Below are positions 941-44,514 of a stretch of 44,514 nt of DNA, piece by piece. Position numbers and translations under genes: made by a program. The stretch comes from an uncultured candidate division WPS-2 bacterium (lineage in GTDB: Bacteria; Vulcanimicrobiota; Vulcanimicrobiia; Vulcanimicrobiales; Vulcanimicrobiaceae). How positions within the stretch are numbered: position 1 is the stretch's first letter; the number at the start of each line of letters is the position of its first letter. The notes below the pieces were generated by a model, which was given only the letters and a program-made list of their open reading frames with translations, was not told the DNA's origin and made no database searches. Where the stretch lies: contig CALEOJ010000386.1 of assembly GCA_937910425.1 (NCBI GenBank), positions 1-44,514 on the forward strand, read 5' to 3'.

Positions 941-1447
941 ATGCCGCACACTTCGGACATGGTCAGCGATATGGCGATCCGCGTTCGTCGCGCCGCCGCC
1001 GGTGACGCCGATCGGATCGACGCGCTGGTGCGTTCGCTCTCGCCCGGCTCCATCTTGAGGCGCTTCATGGGCGGCGTATCGCGCGAGGTCGCAGTTGCGG
1101 AACTGTCCCGCGAGGTCCGGGCCGGCGGCACCGACTTCGCGCTGATCGCGGAGAACTCGCGTGGCGAGCTCATCGGGGAGGCGTACGTCGCCATGCTGAC
1201 CCCGCACGATGCCGAGGCCGCCTTCGTCGTGCGGGATCGCGAGCAGCATCACGGCGTGGGGACGGCGCTCCTGACGGCGATCGTCGCCGAGCTGCGCGCG
1301 CGCGGGGTTCGCACGCTTCACGCTGACACGACGCCTGAAAACGTCGCGATGCTCGCGCTTCTGCACGAGGGCGGATTGGCGTCGCACGAACGGTATCTCA
1401 ACGGCATGATCCACGTCTCGGTCCAGATCGGCGAATCATCGACGTGA
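941..1447 (+). CDS. GNAT-family N-acetyltransferase
   Basis: IRVRRAAAGDADRIDALV at N-term and HHGVGTALLTAIVAELRARGVRTLHADTTPEN acetyl-CoA binding region. Confidence 0.85.
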   Translation: MPHTSDMVSDMAIRVRRAAAGDADRIDALVRSLSPGSILRRFMGGVSREVAVAELSREVRAGGTDFALIAENSRGELIGEAYVAMLTPHDAEAAFVVRDREQHHGVGTALLTAIVAELRARGVRTLHADTTPENVAMLALLHEGGLASHERYLNGMIHVSVQIGESST

Positions 1448-2264
1448 ACGGCGCTTGCGCCGGCCACGCGCCATAGATTAGATCCTCGCACGCAAAAAGG
1501 ATTCCGTCGCCCGGCGATGGGTGCTTCGCCGCACCGGCACCGCCCGCCGCGACGATGCGGGCGACGACTACGCCGATGTCGTCCGTCTGGCGCCCGCCTG
1601 CGTGAGCGCACGCCACGTCGAGCACACCTCGCGCGGGATCGCCCCCACGGCGCAACGATCGCGCGACCGCGCACGCGGTCCGTTCGGCGCCGAAAAAATC
1701 ATCCGAGCCGGCGGGGCGGCTGTCGGCGACGCCGTCGGTCACAATGACCAGCGTCTCGCCCGCGTCGAGGGAGAGTACCGCGTCGCAGACGTGGACCGCG
1801 TACGGCACGCCGAGCATCGGCGCGGTCGGTCCGAGGTGACGGAGACGGCCGTCCTCGGCGAGCGTGAAGGCGACGTCGTGGCCGGCCGATGCGTAGACGA
1901 CGGTCCGCAATGCGGGATGGACCAGCGCGACGAAGGCGACTGCGTACGGCGATTCGTCGGCGAACCTCCGCAGCCGGTCGTCCGCGCAGCCGAGCGCCGC
2001 AGCCGGCGATGCGCCGCCCAGGAGTTCCGCTGTGATCGCGCCGGCGATGGCGGATGCGAGCGGAGCACGGGTCGCGCCGTGGCCGGCGACGTCGACCATG
2101 ACGATCGCGGTGCGGCCGGAGCCGAGCGGCAGCGTGAAGGCCATGTCGCCACAGCGGCCGTCATGGGCGGACGCTGCGCGCACGACCTGCCACACCCGTA
2201 TGCTCGACGGTGGCGGCCGTGGTGTGAAGAATGCACCACGGACCCAAACCGCTGCGTTCGTCAT
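1398..2264 (-). CDS. SpoIIE/PP2C-family serine phosphatase
   Basis: GDMAFTLPLGSGRTAIVMVDVAGHGATRAPLA and GETLVIVTDGVADSRPA motifs of PP2C/SpoIIE phosphatases. Confidence 0.8.
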   Translation of the reverse strand: MTNAAVWVRGAFFTPRPPPSSIRVWQVVRAASAHDGRCGDMAFTLPLGSGRTAIVMVDVAGHGATRAPLASAIAGAITAELLGGASPAAALGCADDRLRRFADESPYAVAFVALVHPALRTVVYASAGHDVAFTLAEDGRLRHLGPTAPMLGVPYAVHVCDAVLSLDAGETLVIVTDGVADSRPAGSDDFFGAERTACAVARSLRRGGDPARGVLDVACAHAGGRQTDDIGVVVARIVAAGGAGAAKHPSPGDGILFACEDLIYGAWPAQAPFTSMIRRSGPRRGSCR

Positions 2265-2642
2265 GTGGCGATGCTACCGCGCGAGAATGAACATCATGTG
2301 AAGGGGCTGACGGCTTCTTTCACGTGCCGTTCTCAATTTGGCGATAGGCTGCGAGCGGGAAACGCACCGAGAGCGAGTGCATCGCTTACCTTGGGAAGCG
2401 GCGTTGCTGCGACCGAGGGTCGAGCGGCGGTGCTTTGACCGCGTTGGGATGCAGCTTCGGCGCATGCTGAGTCGTCTCGTGGTGGATTGCGCGCTCGAGG
2501 GTTTCGACTTCGAGACGGTGCTCCTCGTTAACGCCGTCCGGGCGCGGGGGGTTCGCTTTCCGTGATCTCATGGAGTTCCTCCGGATTGGGTGGCCCGTTC
2601 ATTCTCGCCGAGCCGTGAGAAGAGACGATGAAGAGACGCGGT

Positions 2643-5165
2643 TCACGACTCGGACGCCCTTTGCCCGAAGAACAGACGCTTCCCGAGCTCGATCAAGCCC
2701 AGATACGTGACGACCATCAGCCCGAGAACGGCGAAGAACGCCGGCGGCAAGGCGACGAACCCGAGCACGTGAGCGAGCGGCGTGAACGGCAATGCCAGCG
2801 CGACCGCGGCCACGCCCAGCGTCGCAACGGTGAGCTGCCGGCTCGCGCGGCTGGCAAAGAACGGAACGCGGCGCGTTCGGATGAGAAAGATGACCAGCGA
2901 CTGCGTCGCGAGCGACTCGACGAACCAGCCGGTCCGGAACAGCTCGGGACCCGCGTGAAAGAGGAAGATCATCACGCCGAAGGTGAGGAAATCGAAGATC
3001 GACGAGATCGGCCCGAAGACCATCATGAAGCGCCGGATGAACTGCATGTCCCAGTGCGCCGGGCGCTGGAGCTGCTCCTCATCGACCTTGTCGGTCGGAA
3101 TCGTCATCTCGCTCACGTCGTACAGCAGGTTGTTGAGCAAGATCTGCGATGGCAGCATCGGCAGGAACGGAAGGAAGAGCGATGCGCCCGCGGCGCTGAA
3201 CATGTTGCCGAAGTTCGACGACGTCCCCATCAGCACGTATTTGGTCGTGTTGGCGAAGATGCGGCGGCCCTCGACGACGCCGTCGGCGAGTATCCCAAGG
3301 TCTTTTTCGAGCAGGACGATGTCCGCGGCGTCTTTCGCGACGTCGGTCGCCGAGTCGACCGAGATTCCGACGTCCGCATCATGCAGCGCGACGGCGTCGT
3401 TGACGCCGTCGCCGAGAAAGCCGACCACGCTGTCGGCCGCGCGCTGAAGCTTGATGATGCGCGACTTCTGCTCCGGCGTCACGCGCGCGAAGATCGTCGT
3501 GCCTTCGAGCGCGCCGCTGAGCTCCTCGTCGCTCATCGCGGCGATCTCCTTGCCGGTGAGGACGCCCGCGACCGGCAGACCGAGCTCGCGGCAGACGACG
3601 CGCGCGGTGCGATCGCTGTCGCCCGTCACGATCTTCAGCCGTATCTCGAGCGCCTCGAGGCGCCGCAGGCTCGCCGCGGCGTCCGCCTTCGGCTCGTCGG
3701 CGAAGGCGAGCAAACCGGCAAGCGACAAATCGCGCTCTTCGGAGGGATGGAGCTCGGTCAACGACGGCGCGTCGCGCTGCGCGAGCGCGAGTATTCGGTT
3801 TCCGGCGTCGAGCTGCACGTCGACGAGCTGCTCGAACGCCGTGTCGATCGACCCGCACCGTGCCCCAATCGCTTCCGGCGCGCCTTTGGCGAGGAGCAGG
3901 CGCCGCCCGTCCGGCGCGTCGACCAAGACCGACATCATCTGCCGCTGATAATCGAACGGCGCGCGGTCGATGACGCGATAGCTCGCCGCCCCAGCGCGCC
4001 GCGCCGGCGTCGCGGCTTCCCACAGCGCGACATCGAGCGCGTTGCCGCCGACGACGCGGTCCCCGTCGAAGACGACGTCGGTGCACACCAAGCCCAGTAG
4101 CGCCGCGTCGTCGGAGACCGCCCCACCGGGATCGATCGCGTGGCGAAACGAGATCTTGCCGTTCGTGAGCGTCCCCGTCTTGTCGGTGAAGAGGACCTCG
4201 ACGTTGCCGAGGTCCTCGATTGCGACCAGCCGCTTCACGATCACCGAGCGCCGCGCGAGGCGGCGCGCGCCGACCGAGAGGCTGATCGTGACGATGGCGG
4301 GGAGCAGCTGCGGCGTGATGCCGATCGCGATCGCCAGCGCGAACAGCAGCGACTCCAGCAACGAATGGTGCAGGAGCGCGTTGCACGCGAAGATCGCGGC
4401 CGCCAGAACGACGGTGACGCGGACCAGCAGTAGCGAGAAGCTGCGCAGCCCCAGCTCGAACGCCGTCTGCGGCGGACGTTCCGAGAGCTGGTGCGCGATC
4501 GATCCGAATGCCGCGTCGCGGCCGGTCGCGACGACGACGCCGCTCGCTGCGCCGTTCTTGACGGCGGTGCCGAAGAAGGCGCAGGACGGGAGGTCGAGCG
4601 GCGAGTCGCTCTGCCCGCACGGCGAAGGTGATTTCGTCGCCGGCAGCGCCTCGCCGGTCAGCGCCGACTCGTCGCATTCGAGATCGTGCGCGTCGATGAG
4701 CCGCAGGTCGGCCGGGACGACGTCGCCGACCCCGAGCCGCACGACGTCGCCCGGGACGAGCTCCGTGACGTCGACCGTCTCGCGTCTCCCGCCGCGCACG
4801 ACCACGGCTTTGCGCCGGACGCGCGCGCGCAAGTCCGCGACCGCGTTCTCCGAGCCGAACTCGTTCGCGAAGCTCAATCCCGCGCTGAGGCAGACGATAG
4901 CCAGGATGATCAGCGCGTCGGAGCGGTCGTGCAACCAGAGCGAGACCAGTGCGGTGCTGACCAGCAGGATCAGAAACGGGTTCCCGAGCTGCCGGCCGAG
5001 GATCGCGAACGCGCTGGTGCGGCGCTGCTCGATCTCGTTCGGCCCGGTCCGCCGGAGACGCGCCTCGGCCTCGTCCGGCGCGAGTCCGCCGGGCGAGGTC
5101 CCGAGCCGAAGCAATACCTCGTCGAAGGTGAGTGCCGCGGCGGTCCGCAGGTCCAGGGACGGCAT
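2643..5165 (-). CDS. mgtA: P-type ATPase, magnesium-translocating (MgtA/MgtB-like)
   Basis: 840 aa; LFTDKTGTLTNGKISF phosphorylation site, GDGVNDAVALHDADVGISVDSATDVAKDAADIVLLEKDLGIL; overall MgtA-like. Confidence 0.88.
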   Translation of the reverse strand: MPSLDLRTAAALTFDEVLLRLGTSPGGLAPDEAEARLRRTGPNEIEQRRTSAFAILGRQLGNPFLILLVSTALVSLWLHDRSDALIILAIVCLSAGLSFANEFGSENAVADLRARVRRKAVVVRGGRRETVDVTELVPGDVVRLGVGDVVPADLRLIDAHDLECDESALTGEALPATKSPSPCGQSDSPLDLPSCAFFGTAVKNGAASGVVVATGRDAAFGSIAHQLSERPPQTAFELGLRSFSLLLVRVTVVLAAAIFACNALLHHSLLESLLFALAIAIGITPQLLPAIVTISLSVGARRLARRSVIVKRLVAIEDLGNVEVLFTDKTGTLTNGKISFRHAIDPGGAVSDDAALLGLVCTDVVFDGDRVVGGNALDVALWEAATPARRAGAASYRVIDRAPFDYQRQMMSVLVDAPDGRRLLLAKGAPEAIGARCGSIDTAFEQLVDVQLDAGNRILALAQRDAPSLTELHPSEERDLSLAGLLAFADEPKADAAASLRRLEALEIRLKIVTGDSDRTARVVCRELGLPVAGVLTGKEIAAMSDEELSGALEGTTIFARVTPEQKSRIIKLQRAADSVVGFLGDGVNDAVALHDADVGISVDSATDVAKDAADIVLLEKDLGILADGVVEGRRIFANTTKYVLMGTSSNFGNMFSAAGASLFLPFLPMLPSQILLNNLLYDVSEMTIPTDKVDEEQLQRPAHWDMQFIRRFMMVFGPISSIFDFLTFGVMIFLFHAGPELFRTGWFVESLATQSLVIFLIRTRRVPFFASRASRQLTVATLGVAAVALALPFTPLAHVLGFVALPPAFFAVLGLMVVTYLGLIELGKRLFFGQRASES

Positions 5166-5380
5166 ACCGATACTATGTGCCGCGCCGCGTGAACTCCCCG
5201 TCCGTGTACTCCGCCAGCGTTCGAAGCGTAGGGTCGCAGGACGCGTTCAGCAATAGCCGCGTCGACAGCCGCAGGGCTTCGGCGGCCTCCTCGGATCCCG
5301 GCCGGCGCGCGGCTCTTGCCCGGTGTTCTTGCCGCGGAAGCCGTATCGAGATAGATCGCCCGGGCGCTGGGAGGCGAGGG

Positions 5381-5856
5381 CTACTCGCTGCGGCGGCCTG
5401 CGCGATCCGCAGCATCCGATGTGTGCCCTACGTCGGCGACGACATCGGCGATAAGGCGGTCGAGGAGGTCCGCCAATGCGCGCGGCGCGATGCCGCGCGC
5501 GGCGGTCGCATCGATTGCGCGCCCGAGTATCCCGAGCGGGACCTCATACTCTCCGGACAGGGTGACCTTGGTTGCGGCGGTGCTCGCCTCGGCGAGGTCG
5601 AGGTCGCCTCGAAATCGCGGGTAGAGCGCCGGCCTGGTTCGTGCCGTGATCGTGAGCCCGAATCGGGGGGTTTTCGGCGCAAGATACCTCACGTGCAAGC
5701 GCACCGGCACAGCGACGCGCCCTCCCCCGGGGATCCACGCGGCCAGCACGACCGTCCCGTGCTCGGAGGCTTCCTCCAACGTCTCGAGCTGCCGCCGCAG
5801 CAGCGGCACGATCGCGTCGCAGTTCATCGGAATGCTTCGCACGATCGAGACGGGGG

Positions 5857-5872
<16 letters not shown>
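5381..5872 (-). CDS. SRPBCC-like (START-fold) hypothetical protein
   Basis: C-terminal LSGEYEVPLGILGRAIDATAARGIAPRALADLLDRLIADV resembles the SRPBCC C-terminal signature. Confidence 0.5.
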
Positions 5873-8235
<2,363 letters not shown>

Positions 8236-8239
8236 CGCC

Positions 8240-9088
8240 TCACGCCGAGGTCGTACGCCGGACGGTGACGACCGGGATGCGCGCGTGCTCGACGACGTGT
8301 GCGGCGACGCTGCCCAGCACGAGCCGCTGGAACGCCGGCCGGCCGTGCGTGCCCATCACGATCATGCAGCACTCGAGCTCGTCGGCCGCCGAGAGCAGCG
8401 TCTCGGGCGCGCGGCCTTCACGAACGATGACTTCGGCGCTCACGCCGCGCGCGTGAACGCGCTTCGCGGCGCCGGCCAGCAGGGCGTTCACGCGGCCGGG
8501 ATCCGGGCTCGGCGTATCGCAGGCGTGGATCAGGGCGATCGAAAGTCCGCGTGCGGACGCGATCCAAATCGCGGTTTCGAGCGCGGCGTGCGCCGCCGGC
8601 GACTCGTCGAACGCTACCGCGATGGGGCCTTCTCGCACGACGTCGTCTTCGTGCACCGAGACCACCGGGACGTCGCTGCGCCGAAGGAGTCCCTCCGCGA
8701 CGCTGCCGAGCACGCTGCGTGCCAGGCCGGTTCTGCCGTGCGTGCCGACGACGATCGCCTGGGACCCGCTCTGCCGGACCAGCGACTCGATCGCTTCGAC
8801 GCACTGTCCGTGCAGCACGCGCACCTCCGCCGCGATCCCCGCGCCGGCCGCTTCGACTTGGGCACGCCGGCAGAATTCCGCCGCGTCGTCTTCGAGCACG
8901 GCGAGCATCGGGCCGGGATCGACCGCGACGCCGTAGGTGGCCGGCAGACAGACCAGCATTGGGTCGACGACGCTGCAGAACGTGACCGATCCCCCGCCGC
9001 GCGCGAGCTCCAGCGCGAACGCGACGCCTCGTTCGCTAGTCGTCGAACCGTCGACCGGGACGGTGATGTGCCCAAACGCGGCGCTCAT
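8240..9088 (-). CDS. Universal stress protein, tandem UspA domains
   Basis: Two UspA units, e.g. IVVGTHGRTGLARSVLGSVAEGLLRRSDVPVVSV and IVMGTHGRPAFQRLVLGSVAAHVVEHARIPVVTV. Confidence 0.92.
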   Translation of the reverse strand: MSAAFGHITVPVDGSTTSERGVAFALELARGGGSVTFCSVVDPMLVCLPATYGVAVDPGPMLAVLEDDAAEFCRRAQVEAAGAGIAAEVRVLHGQCVEAIESLVRQSGSQAIVVGTHGRTGLARSVLGSVAEGLLRRSDVPVVSVHEDDVVREGPIAVAFDESPAAHAALETAIWIASARGLSIALIHACDTPSPDPGRVNALLAGAAKRVHARGVSAEVIVREGRAPETLLSAADELECCMIVMGTHGRPAFQRLVLGSVAAHVVEHARIPVVTVRRTTSA

Positions 9089-9194
9089 GTCCTCATCGTC
9101 GCGGCCTCGTAAGAAAGGGCCAAGAATGCGAAGCGTTGTGCGCGTTCACACCCTCTTCACCCGGCCGACCCGTCGCGCGGCGTAGAATACCAGC

Positions 9195-11570
9195 GTGACG
9201 ATCATGGACTCGGCGACGATCCCCTTGCCGGCGCGCCTCGCCGCGCTCGACCGCTACTGGCGGACGGCGAACTACCTCGGGGCCGCGCAGCTCTATCTTC
9301 GCGACAACGTGCTCTTGCGGCGCCCGCTCGAAGCCTCCGACTGCAAGGTCCGCGTGCTCGGGCACTGGGGGACGCAGCCCGGGCTGAATCTCGTGTACAC
9401 GCACCTGAATCGGATCGTGAGCGACCGCGATCTCGACATGCTGCTCGTGGTTGGCCCTGGGCACGGGGCGCCGGCGATCTACGCCAACCTCTTCCTCGAG
9501 GGAACGCTCGGTGACCTCGATCCCCGTTTTGCCCGCGATGAAGCCGGGGCATCGCGGCTGGTGCGAGAGTTCTCGTGGCCGGGCGGTATGCCGAGCCATT
9601 TGACCGCACACGCGCCCGGTGCGCTGCACGAAGGCGGAGAGCTCGGCTACGCGCTTTCGCACGCCTACGGCGTCGCGCTCGACGATCCCGAGCTGGTCGT
9701 TGCCTGCGTCATCGGCGACGGTGAAGCGGAGACCGGCCCGCTCGCCGCATCCTGGCTCTCGCACGCGTTCATCGATCCGACGATGTCGGGCGCCGTGCTG
9801 CCCATCCTTCACCTGAACGGCTATAAACTTTCCGGTCCGACGGTCCTGGCGCGCCTGACCGACGAGGGGCTTCGCGCCTATCTTCGCGGACTTGGCTACG
9901 AGCCGATCGTCGTGCGGGTTGACGACCGGCAGACGGCGGATGCAATGCACGAGAGCCTTTGGCGGGCGTTCGACGCCGCGTACGATCGCCTGGCGGAGCG
10001 CCGTGCCGCCGCGCAGCGGTGCGCCGCGCCGATCGCGCCGCCGGTCCTGGTCCTGCGGTCGCCGAAGGGGATGACCGGGCCTTCGTCGATCGACGGAAAG
10101 CCCGTGGTCGATACGCCACGTTCGCACGGCATCCCGATCAGCGATCCGGTCACGAATGCCGAGCACCGGCTCGCAGTGGAACGATGGTTGCGTTCCTATC
10201 GGCCGGAGGAACTGTTTGACGTGGCGGGCCGGCCGGAAGCGGATATCCTGGAGTGTCTTCCGCCGACCCCTCGGCTGATCGGCCGCAACTCGCGTGCCAA
10301 CGGCGGCACGCGCCGCGTGCCGCTCGTGCTGCCTGCGCTGGAGCCGCACGCATCCAAGTGTCCAGTACCGGGAGCGATCTCTGGCTCGGCGACGCACCGC
10401 CTCGGCGGCTGGCTGGCAGACGTGTTCTGGGCGAACGCGCACACCGCGAACTTCAGGCTCTTCTCCCCGGACGAGACCTCGTCGAACAAACTGGACGACG
10501 TCTTCTCGGTGACCGCGCGAGCATGGGTGTTGCCGCATGTGGCGACCGACGAGTCGCTGGCGCGCGACGGGCGCGTGATGGAGATGCTGAGCGAACATAC
10601 CTGCGAGGGCTGGATGGAAGGCTACGTCCTGTCCGGCCGCCACGGCATCTTTGCATCGTACGAGGGTTTCGTGCCGATCGTCGATTCGATGGTCGCGCAG
10701 TACGCGAAGTGGCTCAAGATGGCGCGAGAGACGCCGTGGCGCCGGCCGCTGTCAGGGTTGAACTTCCTGCTGACGTCCCATGTCTGGCGTCAGGAGCACA
10801 ACGGCTATTCGCACCAGGGTCCCGGATTCGTGAACACGGTGCTCAACAAGAAGCCGGAAGCCGTTCGCGTGTACTTCCCGCCGGATGCGAACACGCTGCT
10901 GTGCGTGATGGAGCACGTGCTGGCGAGCACCGATCGTATCAACGTCGTGGTCGCGCCGAAGCAGGAAGCGCCGCAGTGGTTCAGCCTCGAGCAGGCACGT
11001 GCCCAAAGCGCGGCCGGCGCCAGCCGCTGGACGTGGGCGGCGGACGACCCGAATCCGCATGTCGTGCTCGCCTGCGCCGGCGACGTCATGGCGCAAGAGA
11101 CGTTGGCCGCCGTCTCGCTACTGCGCGCTCACGCGCCGACGCTGCGCCTCAGGGTTGTAAACGTCCTGAACCTCTTCGCCCTCGCATCCCCGGAGATGCA
11201 TCCGAGCGGTACGGACGACCGCCGGTTCGTCGAGCTCTTCACCGGCGACCGTCCGGTCGTGTTTGCCTACCACGGCTATCCGCGCACAGTGCACGAACTG
11301 ATCTACCGGCGCCCGTCGCCGGGCCGTTTCCACGTCCACGGTTACGTCGAGGAAGGGACCACGACGACGCCGTTCGACATGGTCGTGCTGAATCGGGTCA
11401 GCCGCTATCACCTCGCGCTGGACGCGCTCCGGCGCGCCGAAGAGAGCGACGGATACCGCGTCCCGGAGGGCGCGCGCTGGTTCTGCGAAGATGCACTGGA
11501 GCGCCATGCGGCCTACATTCGCGAGTATGGACGCGACATGCCGGAGGTCGTGGATTGGGGCTGGCGCTGA
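9195..11570 (+). CDS. xfp: Xylulose-5-phosphate/fructose-6-phosphate phosphoketolase
   Basis: 791 aa; LGHWGTQPGLNLVYTHLNR, GPGHGAPAIYANLFLEG, GDGEAETGPLAASWLSHAFI, SHVWRQEHNGYSHQGPGFV. Confidence 0.96.
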   Translation: MTIMDSATIPLPARLAALDRYWRTANYLGAAQLYLRDNVLLRRPLEASDCKVRVLGHWGTQPGLNLVYTHLNRIVSDRDLDMLLVVGPGHGAPAIYANLFLEGTLGDLDPRFARDEAGASRLVREFSWPGGMPSHLTAHAPGALHEGGELGYALSHAYGVALDDPELVVACVIGDGEAETGPLAASWLSHAFIDPTMSGAVLPILHLNGYKLSGPTVLARLTDEGLRAYLRGLGYEPIVVRVDDRQTADAMHESLWRAFDAAYDRLAERRAAAQRCAAPIAPPVLVLRSPKGMTGPSSIDGKPVVDTPRSHGIPISDPVTNAEHRLAVERWLRSYRPEELFDVAGRPEADILECLPPTPRLIGRNSRANGGTRRVPLVLPALEPHASKCPVPGAISGSATHRLGGWLADVFWANAHTANFRLFSPDETSSNKLDDVFSVTARAWVLPHVATDESLARDGRVMEMLSEHTCEGWMEGYVLSGRHGIFASYEGFVPIVDSMVAQYAKWLKMARETPWRRPLSGLNFLLTSHVWRQEHNGYSHQGPGFVNTVLNKKPEAVRVYFPPDANTLLCVMEHVLASTDRINVVVAPKQEAPQWFSLEQARAQSAAGASRWTWAADDPNPHVVLACAGDVMAQETLAAVSLLRAHAPTLRLRVVNVLNLFALASPEMHPSGTDDRRFVELFTGDRPVVFAYHGYPRTVHELIYRRPSPGRFHVHGYVEEGTTTTPFDMVVLNRVSRYHLALDALRRAEESDGYRVPEGARWFCEDALERHAAYIREYGRDMPEVVDWGWR

Positions 11571-17137: not shown

Positions 17138-17199
17138 CCGGGACGGTCATCACATAACGGGTGCCGATTTCGTGTCCGAATAACCGGCGCCACCTCTGG

Positions 17200-17322
17200 T
17201 CGGTGCGGTACACGGTCGCTCCGACACCGCGTAGTGTCGCAAGCGTCGTTGCCGCGGGGTGCCCGAACAGGTTGTGTCGGCCGACGCTAATGAGTGCGTA
17301 TCGCGGGTGGACGGCGGCCACG
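17200..17322 (-). pseudogene. Fragment of ComEC-like MBL-fold hydrolase (C-terminal part)
   Basis: AAVHPRYALISVGRHNLFGHPAATTLATLRGVGATVYRTD matches the intact copy at 43671-44514. Confidence 0.8.
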
Positions 17323-17411
17323 AAGCGTGGTATGCTACGCGCCGACAGCGGCTGCTTGGTTCAGACGGCGGCGTCGAAGCGGCGTGGATCGATGTCGATC
17401 TCTCCAAGCGC

Positions 17412-31093: not shown

Positions 31094-31697
31094 CTAGCAC
31101 GTGAGGGTCGTTGTCGCGCCGACATCTCTGCTTGGTTCGACGGTGATGGCGCCGCAGAGGTCGGTGCGGTAGGTCATCGCTCCGGTGCCGTGCAGCGTCG
31201 CGAGCGTCGTTGCCGCGGGGTGTCCGAACAGATTGTGTCGGCCGACGCTGATGAGGGTGTATCTCGGATGGACGGCGGCAGCGAAAGCAGGCGCGGACGA
31301 ATATGCGGAGCCGTGGTGGCCTACTTTCAGGACGTCCGCGTGCAGATCTATGCCGGACTCGAGCAGCCGCTGCTCGGCCTGAAATCCGGCGTCGCCCATG
31401 AACAGCATCCGAAAATCCTGATAGGCCAGCATGATGACGACGGAGTTCTCGTTCACGTCATTCTTGCCGTCGGCGAAGAGCGCGCCGCAGGGCGAGAGCA
31501 CCGAAAGGGTCACGCCGTCGTCGGTTACCCACCGGTCACCGCACCGTGCGACACGGACTGGAACACGACGCAGCGTCGCCTCGCGCATGCCGACGTTGAA
31601 CGCGCGTCCGCCGTAAGTCTGCCCGCTGTCCGCGATCGCATCGACGCGCAGCGCGCGCACGATCGGCGCGAATCCGCCGACGTGATCGCCATGCGGA
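31094..31697 (-). pseudogene. 5'-truncated ComEC-like MBL-fold hydrolase
   Basis: Starts abruptly at NPHGDHVGGFAPIVRALRVDAIADSG and runs to the normal C-terminus; missing the N-terminal ~75 aa of the intact copy. Confidence 0.85.
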
Positions 31698-34061: not shown

Positions 34062-34349
34062 CTAACCGGCGTATCGCGGCAGCCGCAGCAGGTTATCACT
34101 GAGTACGCCGTCCGCCTTGGTACGCAGGTAACGGATGGAGCCATCAGTGACGACAACAACATCCGCAATGTCACCCTTCCAATCACGCGTGATGAACTTT
34201 GTGCCGGAGTCGATCGACTCGATGACTGCAGCGACCGTCCGCGTATAGGCCACGTATGGTTTGACGCCGTCATTGACGATGGCGCAGCCGGCGATGTGCT
34301 TGTGCTCGGCCCCGTCCGACATCCGGACGGCTACGATGTAGCGGGACAT
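34062..34349 (-). CDS. DUF3892-like protein
   Basis: MSRYIVAVRMSDGAEHKHIAGCAI...ITRDWKGDIADVVVVTDGSIRYLRTKADGVLSDNLLRLPRY. Confidence 0.75.
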   Translation of the reverse strand: MSRYIVAVRMSDGAEHKHIAGCAIVNDGVKPYVAYTRTVAAVIESIDSGTKFITRDWKGDIADVVVVTDGSIRYLRTKADGVLSDNLLRLPRYAG

Positions 34350-34443: not shown

Positions 34444-34725
34444 CTAGTAGCGCGGCAGCGCCATTAGGTTGTCGGTGTAGACTTGATCCCGGTAAGTCTG
34501 CACGTATTGGTTGCCCGCGCTGCTGACCCGCGCGGCGACGTACGCGACGTTGCCGGCGGCGTCGCGATCGAACCCGACGCCACCGCCTTTGATGAAGTCG
34601 TGCCAGGCAGCCCTGGTGTCCTCGTAGTTCTTGCCGGTGGAATCATCGGTTGCCTTGAGGCTCGCGATGTGCTCGTGACTCGTCCCCGGGTGGACCACGT
34701 GGACGGCTGTGAAGCGGACCGCCAT
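34444..34725 (-). CDS. DUF3892-like protein (paralog)
   Basis: MAVRFTAVHVVHPGTSHEHIASLKAT...DAAGNVAYVAARVSSAGNQYVQTYRDQVYTDNLMALPRY. Confidence 0.75.
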   Translation of the reverse strand: MAVRFTAVHVVHPGTSHEHIASLKATDDSTGKNYEDTRAAWHDFIKGGGVGFDRDAAGNVAYVAARVSSAGNQYVQTYRDQVYTDNLMALPRY

Positions 34726-36177: not shown

Positions 36178-36384
36178 CTAAGTGTGCGGCAGTCTATGCG
36201 AGCGAACGAGCTCATCGCCGATCTGGACGAGCTCGAAGACTCCGTCTCGTGTCCGTTCGAAGTAGCGTCCCGCCACCATGAAATGAGTGGAGTGGCCTGC
36301 GGCCACATCACGCTCGACTTTGCGCCGGATATAGTCGTTCGCCGCGGCGACCGCCACGCGCATTTCGTCGGTGAATTCCCCCAT
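36178..36384 (-). CDS. MGEFTDEM-family small protein, copy 1
   Basis: MGEFTDEMRVAVAAANDYIRRKVERDVAAGHSTHFMVAGRYFERTRDGVFELVQIGDELVRSHRLPHT, homologous to 38632-38871. Confidence 0.75.
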   Translation of the reverse strand: MGEFTDEMRVAVAAANDYIRRKVERDVAAGHSTHFMVAGRYFERTRDGVFELVQIGDELVRSHRLPHT

Positions 36385-36841
36385 TTTGCGCATAGTGTAC
36401 ACCCGGTACGCGAGGTGGCCAAGCATATCGTCCCCATGCGTTGTCGATTGCGCTAGGTCGGCGCGTCGGCTGCCAACTGCGCCGGCGTTTTGCCGCCTGG
36501 CAGCGGATCAACCACTCTCGCTCGCCGCTCGCTTTGGGGTCAGGGTACGGCGGCGGCTGTGTGAGTCCGAGAGGGTCTTTTGCGTATTTTGGATGATCGT
36601 GGGCGAACGCTTGAAGGTCGTCGTCATCCGAGCCTTCCGGCGGGCTCGCTACGGCGACGACTTGTTCGCGGTACTGCTCCCCGAAGGCTACTGTAATCGC
36701 CGTATCGTTTGTGACGCGCTGCGTGATGGCCGGGTCATCATCCGTTGAGAGTCGCTTCGCGTCCTTAAGCGCGCGATAGAGCTGACCGAAGGGCCTGGCG
36801 GCGCGTCGCATCCGGCTGCGGCGCTCGACGGCCGCGACGGT
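36308..36841 (-). CDS. Hypothetical protein
   Basis: MTVAAVERRSRMRRAARPFGQLYRALKDAKRLSTDDDPAITQRVTNDTAITVAFGEQYREQVVAVASPP...; overlaps copy 1, so the 3' end is uncertain. Confidence 0.35.
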   Translation of the reverse strand, partial: TVAAVERRSRMRRAARPFGQLYRALKDAKRLSTDDDPAITQRVTNDTAITVAFGEQYREQVVAVASPPEGSDDDDLQAFAHDHPKYAKDPLGLTQPPPYPDPKASGEREWLIRCQAAKRRRSWQPTRRPSAIDNAWGRYAWPPRVPGVHYAQNGGIHRRNARGGRRGERLYPAQSRA

Positions 36842-38520: not shown

Positions 38521-38631
38521 GTTGCTCTGTGAGCAACACAACCTAACTAGCTGTCGCTCCGAGCCGAAAGTCGACCCTTTCGTTTGAGCGCCCTCAAGCG
38601 CGCCTCCGGGATGCGTGCTACTCTCAAGGCG

Positions 38632-38871
38632 ATGGGAGAGTTCACCGACGAGATGCTGAAGGCAATGGCCGCGGCGAACGAGCTGATAAGACGCGAGGTC
38701 ACGCAAGCCCTAGCCGACGGGCACTCGACGCACTTTATGCGCGAGGGGCGAATCATCGAACGCACGCGCGACGGCGACTTTGAGCTGATTAAGGTTGGCG
38801 ATGAGCTGGTGCGCTCGCATAAGGTGGCAACCGATCAGGGCTCTTCCGAGCCCCTTAGACCTGATCCCTAA
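38632..38871 (+). CDS. MGEFTDEM-family small protein, copy 2
   Basis: MGEFTDEMLKAMAAANELIRREVTQALADGHSTHFMREGRIIERTRDGDFELIKVGDELVRSHKV. Confidence 0.75.
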   Translation: MGEFTDEMLKAMAAANELIRREVTQALADGHSTHFMREGRIIERTRDGDFELIKVGDELVRSHKVATDQGSSEPLRPDP

Positions 38872-38886
38872 TGCGCCTCACGACAG

Positions 38887-39258
38887 TTGACGTCTTTGTC
38901 ACCGCGAGAGGTTGGTCGTGATCAACCCACGCTGCGCGGCGGCGAGCGCCAGCGGCGGCGAGCTCTCTTGAACCTGCCGGCTAGTTCCATCATGGTTGCA
39001 GTGGCGGCTGCGCTGCTAGGCTCCTATGCCGCGTATCGCGGTGCGCGGATCGCGCGCTGCATGTCCGACCGTCGGCGGTCCGTGGCCGCGATTCGCGAGC
39101 ACGCCAAGCACCTGTACGTAGCCGCGCTTGGACTATTCGCCTGCGCATTTCTCATGCACTGGATCTCGTACTTGACAATGGTCGCCCTCTTTCTTGCGAG
39201 CTATCTTGGCTGGCGACTCATAGCGACGCGAACGCTCGACGGGTACAACAGCGGCTAA
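38887..39258 (+). CDS. Small membrane protein
   Basis: Hydrophobic MVAVAAALLGSYAAYRGARIA and LYVAALGLFACAFLMHWISYLTMVALFLASYLGW. Confidence 0.5.
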   Translation: MTSLSPREVGRDQPTLRGGERQRRRALLNLPASSIMVAVAAALLGSYAAYRGARIARCMSDRRRSVAAIREHAKHLYVAALGLFACAFLMHWISYLTMVALFLASYLGWRLIATRTLDGYNSG

Positions 39259-39631
39259 CCTGCGCGCCGCGCCGGTCGGTCTTTTTTGCGGCGTCGAAAG
39301 ACCTTGGCCACGCTCTTACGGCTGGGCTCGCTAAACCGAAGCGCAGCGGATTAATGCCGCGCCTGAGTTGCAGAGACTGGTGAGAGCCGTGTCGCAAGTA
39401 CCTTCGGAGCGACCAACTTTCGAGCTCTCGACACGGCTATCGCTCGCCTGTCCTTCTTCATTAGCAAAACGCGACGGTTCAAGGTGGCCCGCTATCGTCG
39501 CTGCCCCCAACCCCCAGCAGGGCAAGGGCGGTGCGACAGCAGAACCCTCCGCGCAGGTTCTGTCTTCCATGGCGGGCCGTGAAAGGGTGTTCACATGAAA
39601 ATCGTACCGGGCCTTTTGGCCCTGGTATTGT

Positions 39632-40093
39632 GTGGAGGATGCATGCGTCATAGAAGGAGGGGTGGTCGTAGGCGGCGCTGCGTTAGGCGTCGCCGAAGTA
39701 GCCGAACTTGTCGGCGACGTAGCACTAGCCGGGGCGATTCGCGGTGGCGTTGCAGCGAGTAGACGCGCGGCATGGCAGGCGCTTGAGAGCGCGGGGGGCT
39801 GGGTTAAAGGACGGTTCACGACTACAGCGGGGAGACTTCGCATTGCGGACCACCTGGACCCCGCTAAGAAAGTGCTCGGGGAAGCCAAGGACGTGGCGTA
39901 TCAGTCTCTAACCGCGCAGATTAAGGACGATATCGCATATGTTGAAGCAAACCCGGGGTACACGTTTATCCTGCGGCTTCGCGCCGGCGCGGACCCCACG
40001 AAGTTAAGCAAGCCCTTACAGAAGGTTATGGAAGACTTGATCGCTCGTGGTAGAGGTAGAATACAAGTGGGATCGGAGGATATACACCCGTGA
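39632..40093 (+). CDS. Putative REase-fold toxin (Tox-REase-like C-terminus)
   Basis: RIADHLDPAKKVLGEAKDVAYQSLTAQIKDDIAYVEANPGYTFILRLRAGADPTKLSKPLQKVMEDLIARGRGRIQV: D...ExK pattern of PD-(D/E)xK-type toxins; preceded by a Gly/Ala-rich hydrophobic segment. Confidence 0.7.
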   Translation: MEDACVIEGGVVVGGAALGVAEVAELVGDVALAGAIRGGVAASRRAAWQALESAGGWVKGRFTTTAGRLRIADHLDPAKKVLGEAKDVAYQSLTAQIKDDIAYVEANPGYTFILRLRAGADPTKLSKPLQKVMEDLIARGRGRIQVGSEDIHP

Positions 40094-40836
40094 CGCCATC
40101 ACGCGGTACGAAACCAGTGGCCGCGAGCCCTGACGTTGAGACGAAAGAATGGGCCCGCGTTCGTTCCTGGTCGCATTCGGCAAGGTCCGAACTTCAGAGC
40201 TCGCCGAGTACCGATGGTGCTCGCGAGCGCAATGAACTGGTGCGACGAAATCTTGCCGCTTCAGAGGGGCTTGTAGCTGAATTGCGGCAAGCCGGCGTTC
40301 CGCTAGAGGACATAGGTGAACTCTCGAATGTTCAATTGATGTACCCGAGCGCGGCACCCATCCTTTTGGCGCATCTTGAACGTCCCTATCCCGACGATAT
40401 TCGTATGGCGATCCTCCAGTCGTTACAGCGACCTTACGGAAGCGTTGTGTTCGAGCGACTTCGGGATCTGTTGAAGCATCACGCGGCGTCGCTTCCTCAG
40501 GACGTATCGGCCGGGTACGGCCATGCGATTGCAGCGAATGCGACGAAGGCGGACATTCCCGACCTCGTCGCCATGATCAAGGACCCCGCCCTCGGCATGG
40601 CACGCCTCTCCATCGCGCTACGAGCGGCGCGTTGGCGCGATGAACGCGTAGCGGAGGCAATTCGGCAACTTTTCCGGGAGCACTCGTTACCGTGGGCTGC
40701 CCTGCGCGCTGCACGACTGGCCAAGCTTTGGGACTTACGAGACGAGGTCCGTCCGTACCTCAACCATTCGACCGCCGATTTTCGGGAGGAGGCACGGGCA
40801 TACTTCCGGGCTTTGGATAAGGCTGCTGCGAAGTAG
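40090..40836 (+). CDS. HEAT-repeat-like protein, putative cognate immunity protein
   Basis: Helical repeats (ILLAHLERPYPDDIRMAILQSLQRP.., DIPDLVAMIKDPALGMARLSIALRAARW, ALRAARLAKLWDLRDEVRPYL); GTG start overlaps the toxin stop (GTGA). Confidence 0.65.
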   Translation: MTPSRGTKPVAASPDVETKEWARVRSWSHSARSELQSSPSTDGARERNELVRRNLAASEGLVAELRQAGVPLEDIGELSNVQLMYPSAAPILLAHLERPYPDDIRMAILQSLQRPYGSVVFERLRDLLKHHAASLPQDVSAGYGHAIAANATKADIPDLVAMIKDPALGMARLSIALRAARWRDERVAEAIRQLFREHSLPWAALRAARLAKLWDLRDEVRPYLNHSTADFREEARAYFRALDKAAAK

Positions 40837-41105: not shown

Positions 41106-41912
41106 ATGGACGAACGCTTGCCGACCAACCCCCTAATAGGTCTCGGACGAGAGCTGATCGCTCTCATCGAGAAAGCCGTCGATGTCCTGACGCCCGAGAC
41201 AGGCACGCCCTTGAGCCGACGAGACGTGGCGGCCCGACGGTGCGAGCTCCAGCTTGCGGTCCTTACGGTGAACGTCTCGGTTTCTGTGCTCTTGCTTTGC
41301 GAAGCTGGCGACGCACGCGGAGCGTACATTCTGCTGCGAAGCATCTACGAGTATCGCGTCAAAGCTGCTTACTTCCGAAAACACCCTAAGATCGCGTTCG
41401 AACAATACAAAAGCATCCAAGCTCGCCTGCATGCGCACCTCTCAAAGCTGAACCATCCAACACCGGGAATCACCGCGATCGTGGAAGCGGACCTTCGCGA
41501 ATGGCGCAAAACGGCTGGCGCAAGAGATGAGTATTCGGGTTCTGTGCAGTTTACGAAGATGGCGATGGACCTCGCCGACGACGCTCAGAAAAAGAAAGAT
41601 AAGCGTGGTCACGAGTACACAGCAGACAATCAGACACTCTATGGGATAGCTTCGCTCTACGCCCATGGTGACGTATCGCTTATGCACGAGGTGTTCCCTA
41701 ATTGGCGAGACGACAGCGATTGGACGATCGACGAATCTCGTGCAAATGTCAGTACGTCTACGGTCCTCTTCGGGCTGAACTCAATCCTAGCTTTGTATCT
41801 GAAGGAATTGGGAAGCGCTTACGGCCTGGACGTCACTGCCATACATGGGATCATGGGACGCATGCTCGCCTTGAACCAAAATCTTAGGATTACTGAGCCC
41901 GATACAGGGTAG
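41106..41912 (+). CDS. DUF5677-like hypothetical protein
   Basis: LLCEAGDARGAYILLRSIYEYRVKAAYFRKHPKIAFEQY...YGIASLYAHGDVSLM. Confidence 0.6.
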   Translation: MDERLPTNPLIGLGRELIALIEKAVDVLTPETGTPLSRRDVAARRCELQLAVLTVNVSVSVLLLCEAGDARGAYILLRSIYEYRVKAAYFRKHPKIAFEQYKSIQARLHAHLSKLNHPTPGITAIVEADLREWRKTAGARDEYSGSVQFTKMAMDLADDAQKKKDKRGHEYTADNQTLYGIASLYAHGDVSLMHEVFPNWRDDSDWTIDESRANVSTSTVLFGLNSILALYLKELGSAYGLDVTAIHGIMGRMLALNQNLRITEPDTG

Positions 41913-42101: not shown

Positions 42102-42490
42102 TTAAACGGTAAAGCGCGAGACGTCAGCGCGAAGGTCGGTACGCTCGCGCAAGAGTCGCTGCTCCGTCTCAAATCCTGCGTCGCCCGTGAACAGGATGCG
42201 GAACGCGGCATAGTGCAGCATAACGACGACCGAGTTCTCGTTGACGTCGTTTTTGCCGTCGGCGAGAAGCGTACCGCACGGCGAGAGCACCGACAGCACG
42301 ACGCCGTCATCTGTCGACAACCGATCGCCGCAGCGTGCGATCCGAATCGGTACGTGGTGCTCCGCGGCTTCGCGTAGGCCGTCGTTGAAGGCCCGTCCGC
42401 CATACCGCTGTCCGCTGTCCGCGATCGCATCCACACGAAGCGCGCGCACGATTGGGGCGAGACCACCGACATGATCGCAGTAGGGAATCG
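42102..42490 (-). pseudogene. Doubly truncated ComEC-like MBL-fold hydrolase fragment
   Basis: Begins PYCDHVGGLAPIVRALRVDAIADSGQRYGGRAF and stops after RTDLRADVSRFTV, before the GHHGS motif. Confidence 0.85.
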
Positions 42491-43670: not shown

Positions 43671-44514
43671 TCAACAGCGTAGCATAGTAGACGGACGGCG
43701 CCCGTTCGCCTCAACGATGATTGCGCCGCAGAGGTCGGTCCGGTACGCGATAGCGCCGGCGTCGCGGAGCGTCGCGAGCGTCTGCGCCGCGGGGTGTCCG
43801 AACAGGTTGTGCCGTCCGACGCTGATCAGTGCGGAGCGCGCATGAACCGCGGCGATGAACGCCGGCGTCGACGAGTATGCCGACCCGTGATGGCCTACTT
43901 TCAGGATGTCGGCGCGGACGTCGGCGCCTGACGCGAGCATGCGGGCCTCGGTCTGCGCGCCGGCGTCGCCGGTGAACAGCATGCGAAAGGGTGCGGCGCA
44001 GCCGACGCAGCGATAGGTCATCATCACGACGACCGAGTTTTCGTTGACGTCATTGCGGCCTTCTGCGAGCAGCGGCTCCTCCGGCGCAAGCGCGTCGAAC
44101 GCGACACCGTCACCCGTGGCGTAGTGCATCCCCTTGCGAACGAGGATGACTGGTACGTGATGGGCGTGTGCCGCGGCCAGACAGTCGCGGAACGCCCGCC
44201 CGCCGTAGTCCTGTCCCGAGTCGCCGATCGCGTCGACGCGTAGCGCGTTCACGATCGGAAAGCAACCGCCGACATGATCGCCGTGCGGGTGCGTGTTTAC
44301 CAGCAGGTCGACGTGCCGGACCCCTTCGCGCTTCAGATAGGCCAGGACGACTCGCTCGCCGACGAGCTCGGCGGGGGATCGGCCGTCCCTGGCTGGGCCG
44401 CGCTCGAGGCGGCCGCCGCTGTCGATCAGGATCACGTGGCCGCGCGGGGTTCGCACGACGATCCCGTCACCCTGGCCGACGTCGAGCATCGTAATAGTCA
44501 GCTTCCCGTCCGGG
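43671..44514 (-). CDS. ComEC/Rec2-like MBL-fold hydrolase (5' end outside window)
   Basis: PDGKLTITMLDVGQGDGIVVRTPRGHVILIDSGG; LLVNTHPHGDHVGGCFP; ILKVGHHGSAYSSTPAFIAAVHARSALISVGRHNLFGHP. Confidence 0.92.
   Translation of the reverse strand, partial: PDGKLTITMLDVGQGDGIVVRTPRGHVILIDSGGRLERGPARDGRSPAELVGERVVLAYLKREGVRHVDLLVNTHPHGDHVGGCFPIVNALRVDAIGDSGQDYGGRAFRDCLAAAHAHHVPVILVRKGMHYATGDGVAFDALAPEEPLLAEGRNDVNENSVVVMMTYRCVGCAAPFRMLFTGDAGAQTEARMLASGADVRADILKVGHHGSAYSSTPAFIAAVHARSALISVGRHNLFGHPAAQTLATLRDAGAIAYRTDLCGAIIVEANGRRPSTMLRC

What the first reader, a model, noticed from the sequence alone, without database searches (positions are those of the whole stretch)
39632..40836. Compact REase-fold toxin coupled to a HEAT-like putative immunity protein
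Seen: a 153-aa ORF ends in RIADHLD..VLGEAKDVAYQSL..QIKDDI..TFILRLRAGADPTKLSKPLQ. This has the D...ExK layout and the 'K-LSKPLQ' tail typical of polymorphic-toxin REase domains. Its TGA overlaps the GTG of a helical-repeat ORF (GTGA). Known: contact-dependent, Rhs and T6SS toxins are followed directly by immunity genes, and HEAT-like immunity proteins exist. Inference: a stand-alone toxin/immunity cassette without the usual large delivery protein, and so possibly a new type of short effector or a displaced cassette.
Basis: partly seen in the sequence, partly recalled or inferred. Interest (0 to 1): 0.75.

Follow-up and report, generated by a model that had tools for sequence, protein, structure and literature searches.

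The report
Orphan Rhs toxin tip with immunity
A small gene for a probable nucleic-acid-cutting antibacterial toxin, next to the gene for its likely antidote, has broken away from the large Rhs delivery protein it normally tips; both this pair and this kind of detachment are already known, so the finding is mostly ordinary.

Summary
ORF 39632-40093 (153 aa) matches Pfam Tox-REase-7 (PF15649, E=1.3e-10, above the gathering score) and keeps the IxD, ExK and Q motifs. Its TGA overlaps, as GTGA, the GTG of a 248-aa ORF (40090-40836) that belongs to a HEAT-repeat family. Zhang et al. 2012 already list Tox-REase-7 with HEAT immunity proteins. "New type of short effector" is not supported; "displaced cassette" is. 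In a genus-mate (G126, Candidatus Eremiobacterota) the same toxin domain is the C-terminal tip of an Rhs protein, followed directly by a HEAT homolog. In G127 the closest homolog of the pair still carries the last residues of the Rhs core (PYMWNRNNPYSYADPSGY) before a frameshifted toxin, while its HEAT gene is intact. The window copy has lost that remnant; its start codon has no visible Shine-Dalgarno, and the ATG upstream is out of frame. No Rhs core was found elsewhere in G000 or G127. HEAT homologs without this toxin occur in three further genomes. Best reading: an orphan rhs-CT/rhsI module in a variable locus, kept mainly for immunity or as a recombination reservoir. New member of a known kind.

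The parts
39632..40093 (+). Toxin ORF, 153 aa: detached Rhs C-terminal tip with a Tox-REase-7 nuclease domain (residues 63-129); IxD I71/D73, ExK E84/K86
   Evidence: PF15649 E=1.3e-10 above gathering score; homologs on an Rhs tip in G126 and behind an Rhs-core remnant in G127
40090..40836 (+). Likely cognate immunity ORF, 248 aa, HEAT-repeat family; GTG overlaps the toxin stop (GTGA); GGAGG about 10 bases upstream of the start
   Evidence: Homologs in five other genomes, HEAT_2 in homologs, profile hits to HEAT/alphaRep structures, all-helical model, start context
39585..39626 (+). 42-bp leader with ribosome site and ATG (39595), 90% identical to the start of an apparently secreted-protein ORF in G129; frame differs from the toxin's
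39632..39670 (+). Junction: VEDACVIEG corresponds to G127 LEDACVVEG, which there follows the Rhs-core end DPSGYC; the core itself is lost here
39240..39250 (.). Left end of synteny with G121 (95% identity up to about 39246); sequence beyond is different there

Best explanation
The two genes are an orphan rhs-CT/rhsI module. The first encodes a PD-(D/E)xK-type nuclease toxin domain of the Tox-REase-7 family, which in a relative is the C-terminal tip of an Rhs delivery protein. The second encodes its HEAT-repeat immunity protein, which would bind and block the nuclease in the producing cell. Here the tip and the immunity gene have separated from the Rhs core. On a full Rhs protein the tip would be delivered to neighbouring bacteria and would cut nucleic acid. 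In this genome the toxin has no delivery region and no clear translation start, so it is probably silent or barely made. The immunity gene has its own ribosome-binding site and an intact frame and is probably made, giving protection against related Rhs toxins, with the pair also available for recombination back onto an Rhs core. Shown by sequence: domain homology, the same pair on an Rhs protein in a relative, loss of the core here, and occurrence of the HEAT gene without this toxin elsewhere. Inferred: nuclease activity, neutralisation, expression state, and the reason it is kept.
For: Tox-REase-7 match above cut-off. G126: Rhs protein with QKPFMWNRNNPYVFSDPSGY, a PF15649 tip and a HEAT homolog directly behind. 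G127: nearest relative of the pair behind only PYMWNRNNPYSYADPSGYC, toxin frameshifted, HEAT intact. No Rhs core in G000 by TIGR03696 or the local profile A3, while the same searches ring in other genus members. HEAT homologs without this toxin in G124, G109, G098. Toxin GTG without visible Shine-Dalgarno, HEAT GTG with GGAGG. Published: Tox-REase-7 paired with HEAT immunity (PMC3482391); orphan modules that lack translation initiation and encode working pairs (PMC3150448; PMC3967940).
Against: The toxin frame is open over 153 codons in the window and nonsynonymous change against G127 is low, so the toxin may still be used. G000 is 92% complete in 408 contigs, so an Rhs gene could be missing from the assembly. 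Neutralisation of this toxin by this HEAT protein is not shown. The window HEAT ORF alone is below the HEAT_2 cut-off.
Confidence: 0.82

Rival explanations
1. The pair works inside its own cell as a type II toxin-antitoxin module: a little toxin is made from an internal promoter or weak start and is neutralised by the HEAT protein; growth slows when the HEAT protein is degraded.
For: Starsta et al. 2020 report that Rhs toxin-immunity pairs in Salmonella act as type II toxin-antitoxin loci with internal promoters; that strain carries an orphan rhs gene (PMC7043789). Both frames are open in the window.
Against: No promoter-like site by a simple scan (weak evidence in this phylum) and no visible Shine-Dalgarno for the toxin. 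In G127 the toxin is frameshifted while the HEAT gene is intact, and HEAT homologs occur without this toxin.
Confidence: 0.08
2. It is a free-standing exported effector: a Rhs tip fused to the start of a secreted-protein gene, which would give it a signal peptide of its own.
For: The 42 bp directly upstream are 90% identical to the start of an apparently secreted-protein ORF in G129 and supply an ATG and ribosome site.
Against: The leader ATG is in a different frame from the toxin, the leader was found in only one other of eleven genus genomes, in front of another ORF, and relatives carry the toxin on or beside Rhs core sequence.
Confidence: 0.05
3. It is a dead remnant under no selection; neither gene is used.
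For: No delivery gene found in the genome, broken junction, no promoter by simple scan, decayed toxin in G127.
Against: Both frames open in the window, HEAT frame without internal stops in all five relatives, low nonsynonymous change (synonymous sites near saturation), GGAGG before the HEAT start.
Confidence: 0.05

Closest known systems
Tox-REase-7 (PF15649) with Imm-HEAT in polymorphic toxin systems (Zhang et al. 2012, PMC3482391)
   Same: Same toxin family by Pfam; partner of the HEAT class that the paper lists for this toxin; adjacent genes
   Different: Window toxin is not attached to a delivery protein; G of the GxxxE motif is replaced by W48
Orphan rhs-CT/rhsI and cdiA-CT/cdiI modules (PMC3150448; PMC3967940)
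   Same: Detached C-terminal toxin tip plus immunity gene, weak or absent translation start for the toxin, related tips on full-length Rhs in other genomes
   Different: No main rhs gene found in this assembly; the core remnant and DPSGY junction kept by G127 are lost here
Orphan immunity genes (PMC12247911, PMC12483513, seen as titles and abstracts only)
   Same: HEAT gene kept without a usable cognate effector in several genomes
   Different: Protection not tested here; an open toxin frame is still present in the window
Rhs pairs as type II toxin-antitoxin loci (PMC7043789)
   Same: Toxin and neutraliser from an rhs tip, one of them an orphan
   Different: Internal expression of the toxin is not shown here

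Membership tests
Tox-REase-7 (PF15649) | Profile match above the curated cut-off | tested here: met
   41.8 bits against 25, E=1.3e-10
Tox-REase-7 (PF15649) | IxD, ExK and Q residues (motifs in PMC3482391) | tested here: met
   I71xD73, E84xK86, Q91/Q96 in the translation
Tox-REase-7 (PF15649) | GxxxE motif | tested here: inconclusive
   E52 present, but W48 in place of G; the Pfam match starts at model position 22
Tox-REase-7 (PF15649) | Restriction-endonuclease fold | tested here: inconclusive
   Single-sequence model too poor (pLDDT 51.6); Foldseek has no hit at E<=0.001, though weak top hits include XPF/Mus81 and XisH
Tox-REase-7 (PF15649) | Nuclease toxicity | not testable with these tools
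   Needs expression
Imm-HEAT immunity protein | HEAT-repeat alpha solenoid | tested here: met
   By family: HEAT_2 in homologs, PDB profile hits, all-helical model; the window ORF alone is below the HEAT_2 cut-off
Imm-HEAT immunity protein | Encoded directly after a toxin, recurrently | tested here: met
   Window, G126 and G127
Imm-HEAT immunity protein | Neutralises the cognate toxin | not testable with these tools
   Needs co-expression or binding
Orphan rhs-CT/rhsI module | Related tip found on a full Rhs protein elsewhere | tested here: met
   G126 Rhs open frame of 1311 aa with a PF15649 tip
Orphan rhs-CT/rhsI module | Lacks the Rhs core and a clear translation start | tested here: met
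   No core upstream, no visible Shine-Dalgarno at the GTG
Orphan rhs-CT/rhsI module | Lies beside a main rhs gene (usual position, not a requirement) | tested here: not met
   No Rhs core found in G000; assembly 92% complete

The most novel reading that the evidence does not exclude
A Rhs toxin tip that has become a free-standing exported effector by capturing the start of a secreted-protein gene (39585-39626), with the frame break being an assembly error or bypassed during translation.
Probability: 0.05. Interest if true: 0.55.

Novelty: new member of a known kind. Interest (0 to 1): 0.2.

Why it matters
It adds an Eremiobacterota example of the Tox-REase-7/HEAT pair and of orphan Rhs modules, including two genomes (G000, G127) that keep the immunity gene intact although no Rhs core was found elsewhere in them. 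That fits the idea that immunity genes are kept for protection from neighbours. It does not define a new system.

Tried and rejected
Stand-alone short effector: rejected as main reading because a relative carries the domain on Rhs and the leader is out of frame. A scan of species genomes with the toxin protein found no relative at that tool's sensitivity, and the immunity alignment was too diverse for the scan, so the Rhs junction alignment A3 was used. NCBIfam gave nothing for either protein. phmmer against the PDB gave nothing for the toxin. The toxin was folded without an alignment and the model is too poor to use. The HEAT model gave no significant Foldseek match, though the weak top hits are mostly alphaRep, HEAT and armadillo proteins.

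Full report
What is there. The first matches Pfam Tox-REase-7 well above its gathering score (E=1.3e-10). Its IxD (I71xD73), ExK (E84xK86) and Q residues are present; the G of the GxxxE motif given for the family is not (W48, with E52). The second ORF scores weakly on HEAT_2 alone, but five homologs in the phylum include two above the HEAT_2 gathering score, the family profile retrieves HEAT and alphaRep structures from the PDB, YibA among them, and AlphaFold2 gives an all-helical model (pLDDT 71). The toxin model was too poor to test the fold.

Where it comes from. The phylum is taken to be Candidatus Eremiobacterota: two genus-mates, G126 and G121, have contigs of exactly the same length as named records (JAQBPK010000170.1, 7328 bases; PLJL01000004.1, 2370584 bases), and most Rhs relatives carry that name. 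In G126 an Rhs protein (1311-aa open frame) has QKPFMWNRNNPYVFSDPSGY, then a tip that matches PF15649, followed within a few bases by the open frame of a HEAT homolog. In G127 the closest relative of the window pair follows only the remnant PYMWNRNNPYSYADPSGYC; its toxin is split between two frames, while its HEAT gene is intact. In the window the remnant too is gone: G127 'DPSGYCLEDACVVEG' corresponds to 'PWYCVEDACVIEG'. So the window copy is one step further from an Rhs gene.

No Rhs core found in the genome. TIGR03696 finds nothing in G000 at E<=1 but rings in six of eleven genus genomes. The local junction profile A3 finds nothing in G000, matches seven of eleven, and in G127 finds only the orphan's own remnant. 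G000 is 92% complete in 408 contigs, so absence is likely but not proven.

Upstream of the module. Synteny with G121 (95% identity) runs to 39246 and stops. From 39585 to 39626 there is a 42-bp stretch 90% identical to the start of an apparently secreted-protein ORF in G129. It supplies a ribosome site and an ATG (39595), but its frame differs from the toxin's. The toxin's GTG (39632) has no visible Shine-Dalgarno; the HEAT GTG has GGAGG about ten bases upstream. No sigma-70-like promoter was found by a simple scan, which is weak evidence in this phylum.

The neighbourhood is variable. Copies or fragments of a gene that looks like the metallo-beta-lactamase-fold part of ComEC (my reading of the sequence, no family search run) lie at 17198-17324, 31094-31660, 42102-42449 and 43671-44489. 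In G129 similar copies at C4:603-617 kb flank an Rhs gene at 611.3 kb, and in G127 one lies about 5 kb from the orphan pair. This suggests, but does not prove, that the window region is a former Rhs site.

Is it maintained? Between G000 and G127 the nonsynonymous/synonymous ratio is about 0.07-0.15 for the toxin pieces and 0.24 for the HEAT gene, with synonymous sites near saturation, so the values are rough and may mostly reflect time spent on an Rhs gene. The HEAT gene occurs without this toxin in G124 (behind a full Rhs with another tip and a small ORF), G109 and G098. Third-position GC of both genes (0.60, 0.61) is lower than in two core genes of the window (0.83, 0.80), as expected for acquired genes.

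How it most likely works. On an Rhs protein the domain would be carried into a neighbour and cut nucleic acid, with the HEAT protein protecting the producer. Detached as here, the toxin is probably not made in quantity, and the HEAT gene is probably what is useful. Activity, neutralisation and expression are inferred.

What is known. Zhang et al. 2012 (PMC3482391) define Tox-REase-7, list HEAT-repeat proteins among its immunity partners, and describe standalone toxin cassettes. PMC3150448 (2011) and PMC3967940 (2014) describe orphan CT/immunity modules that usually lack translation initiation yet encode working pairs. PMC7043789 (2020, abstract and outline only) reports Rhs pairs acting as toxin-antitoxin loci, which is the main rival. 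The window pair is a new member of these known kinds.

Noticed in passing
window 17198-17324, 31094-31660, 42102-42449, 43671-44489: Repeated copies or fragments of one gene (ComEC/metallo-beta-lactamase-like by eye); similar copies flank an Rhs gene in G129 and lie near the orphan pair in G127, which suggests a recombination hotspot.
   Followed up: partly
window 36178-36426 (-) and 38584-38871 (+): Two small ORFs on opposite strands that share a segment about 65% identical (MGEFTDEM...ERTRDG.FEL...GDELVRSHK); the second has a 95% identical copy in G121. No Pfam family above its cut-off for the second; the first was not scanned.
   Followed up: partly
window 34062-34349 (-) and 34444-34725 (-): Two neighbouring ORFs of about 95 aa, 35% identical to each other, apparently a tandem duplication; no family search was run.
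   Followed up: no
window 41106-41912 (+): DUF5677 protein (PF18928, E=1.6e-10); a 31% identical relative lies at G121:C4:604 kb, about 8 kb from the stretch syntenic with the window's left flank.
   Followed up: no
L012 (G109:C77) 1126-7708: About eight to nine copies of a 50-90-nt repeat spaced between small ORFs, one of them the HEAT homolog, with a tyrosine recombinase gene just beyond (8739-9905). It looks like a cassette array; whether the repeats are integron attC sites was not established.
   Followed up: partly
L037-L053: Seventeen Rhs-junction loci, most named Eremiobacterota, with varied tips after a QKP(Y/F)MWN...DP(S/T)G(Y/F) junction, many with a small ORF close behind; by eye only L040 shows the Tox-REase-7/HEAT pair.
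   Followed up: partly
window 39585-39626; L020 1394-2128: The leader in front of the toxin matches the start of an apparently secreted-protein ORF in G129, found in no other of the eleven genus genomes by pattern search.
   Followed up: partly
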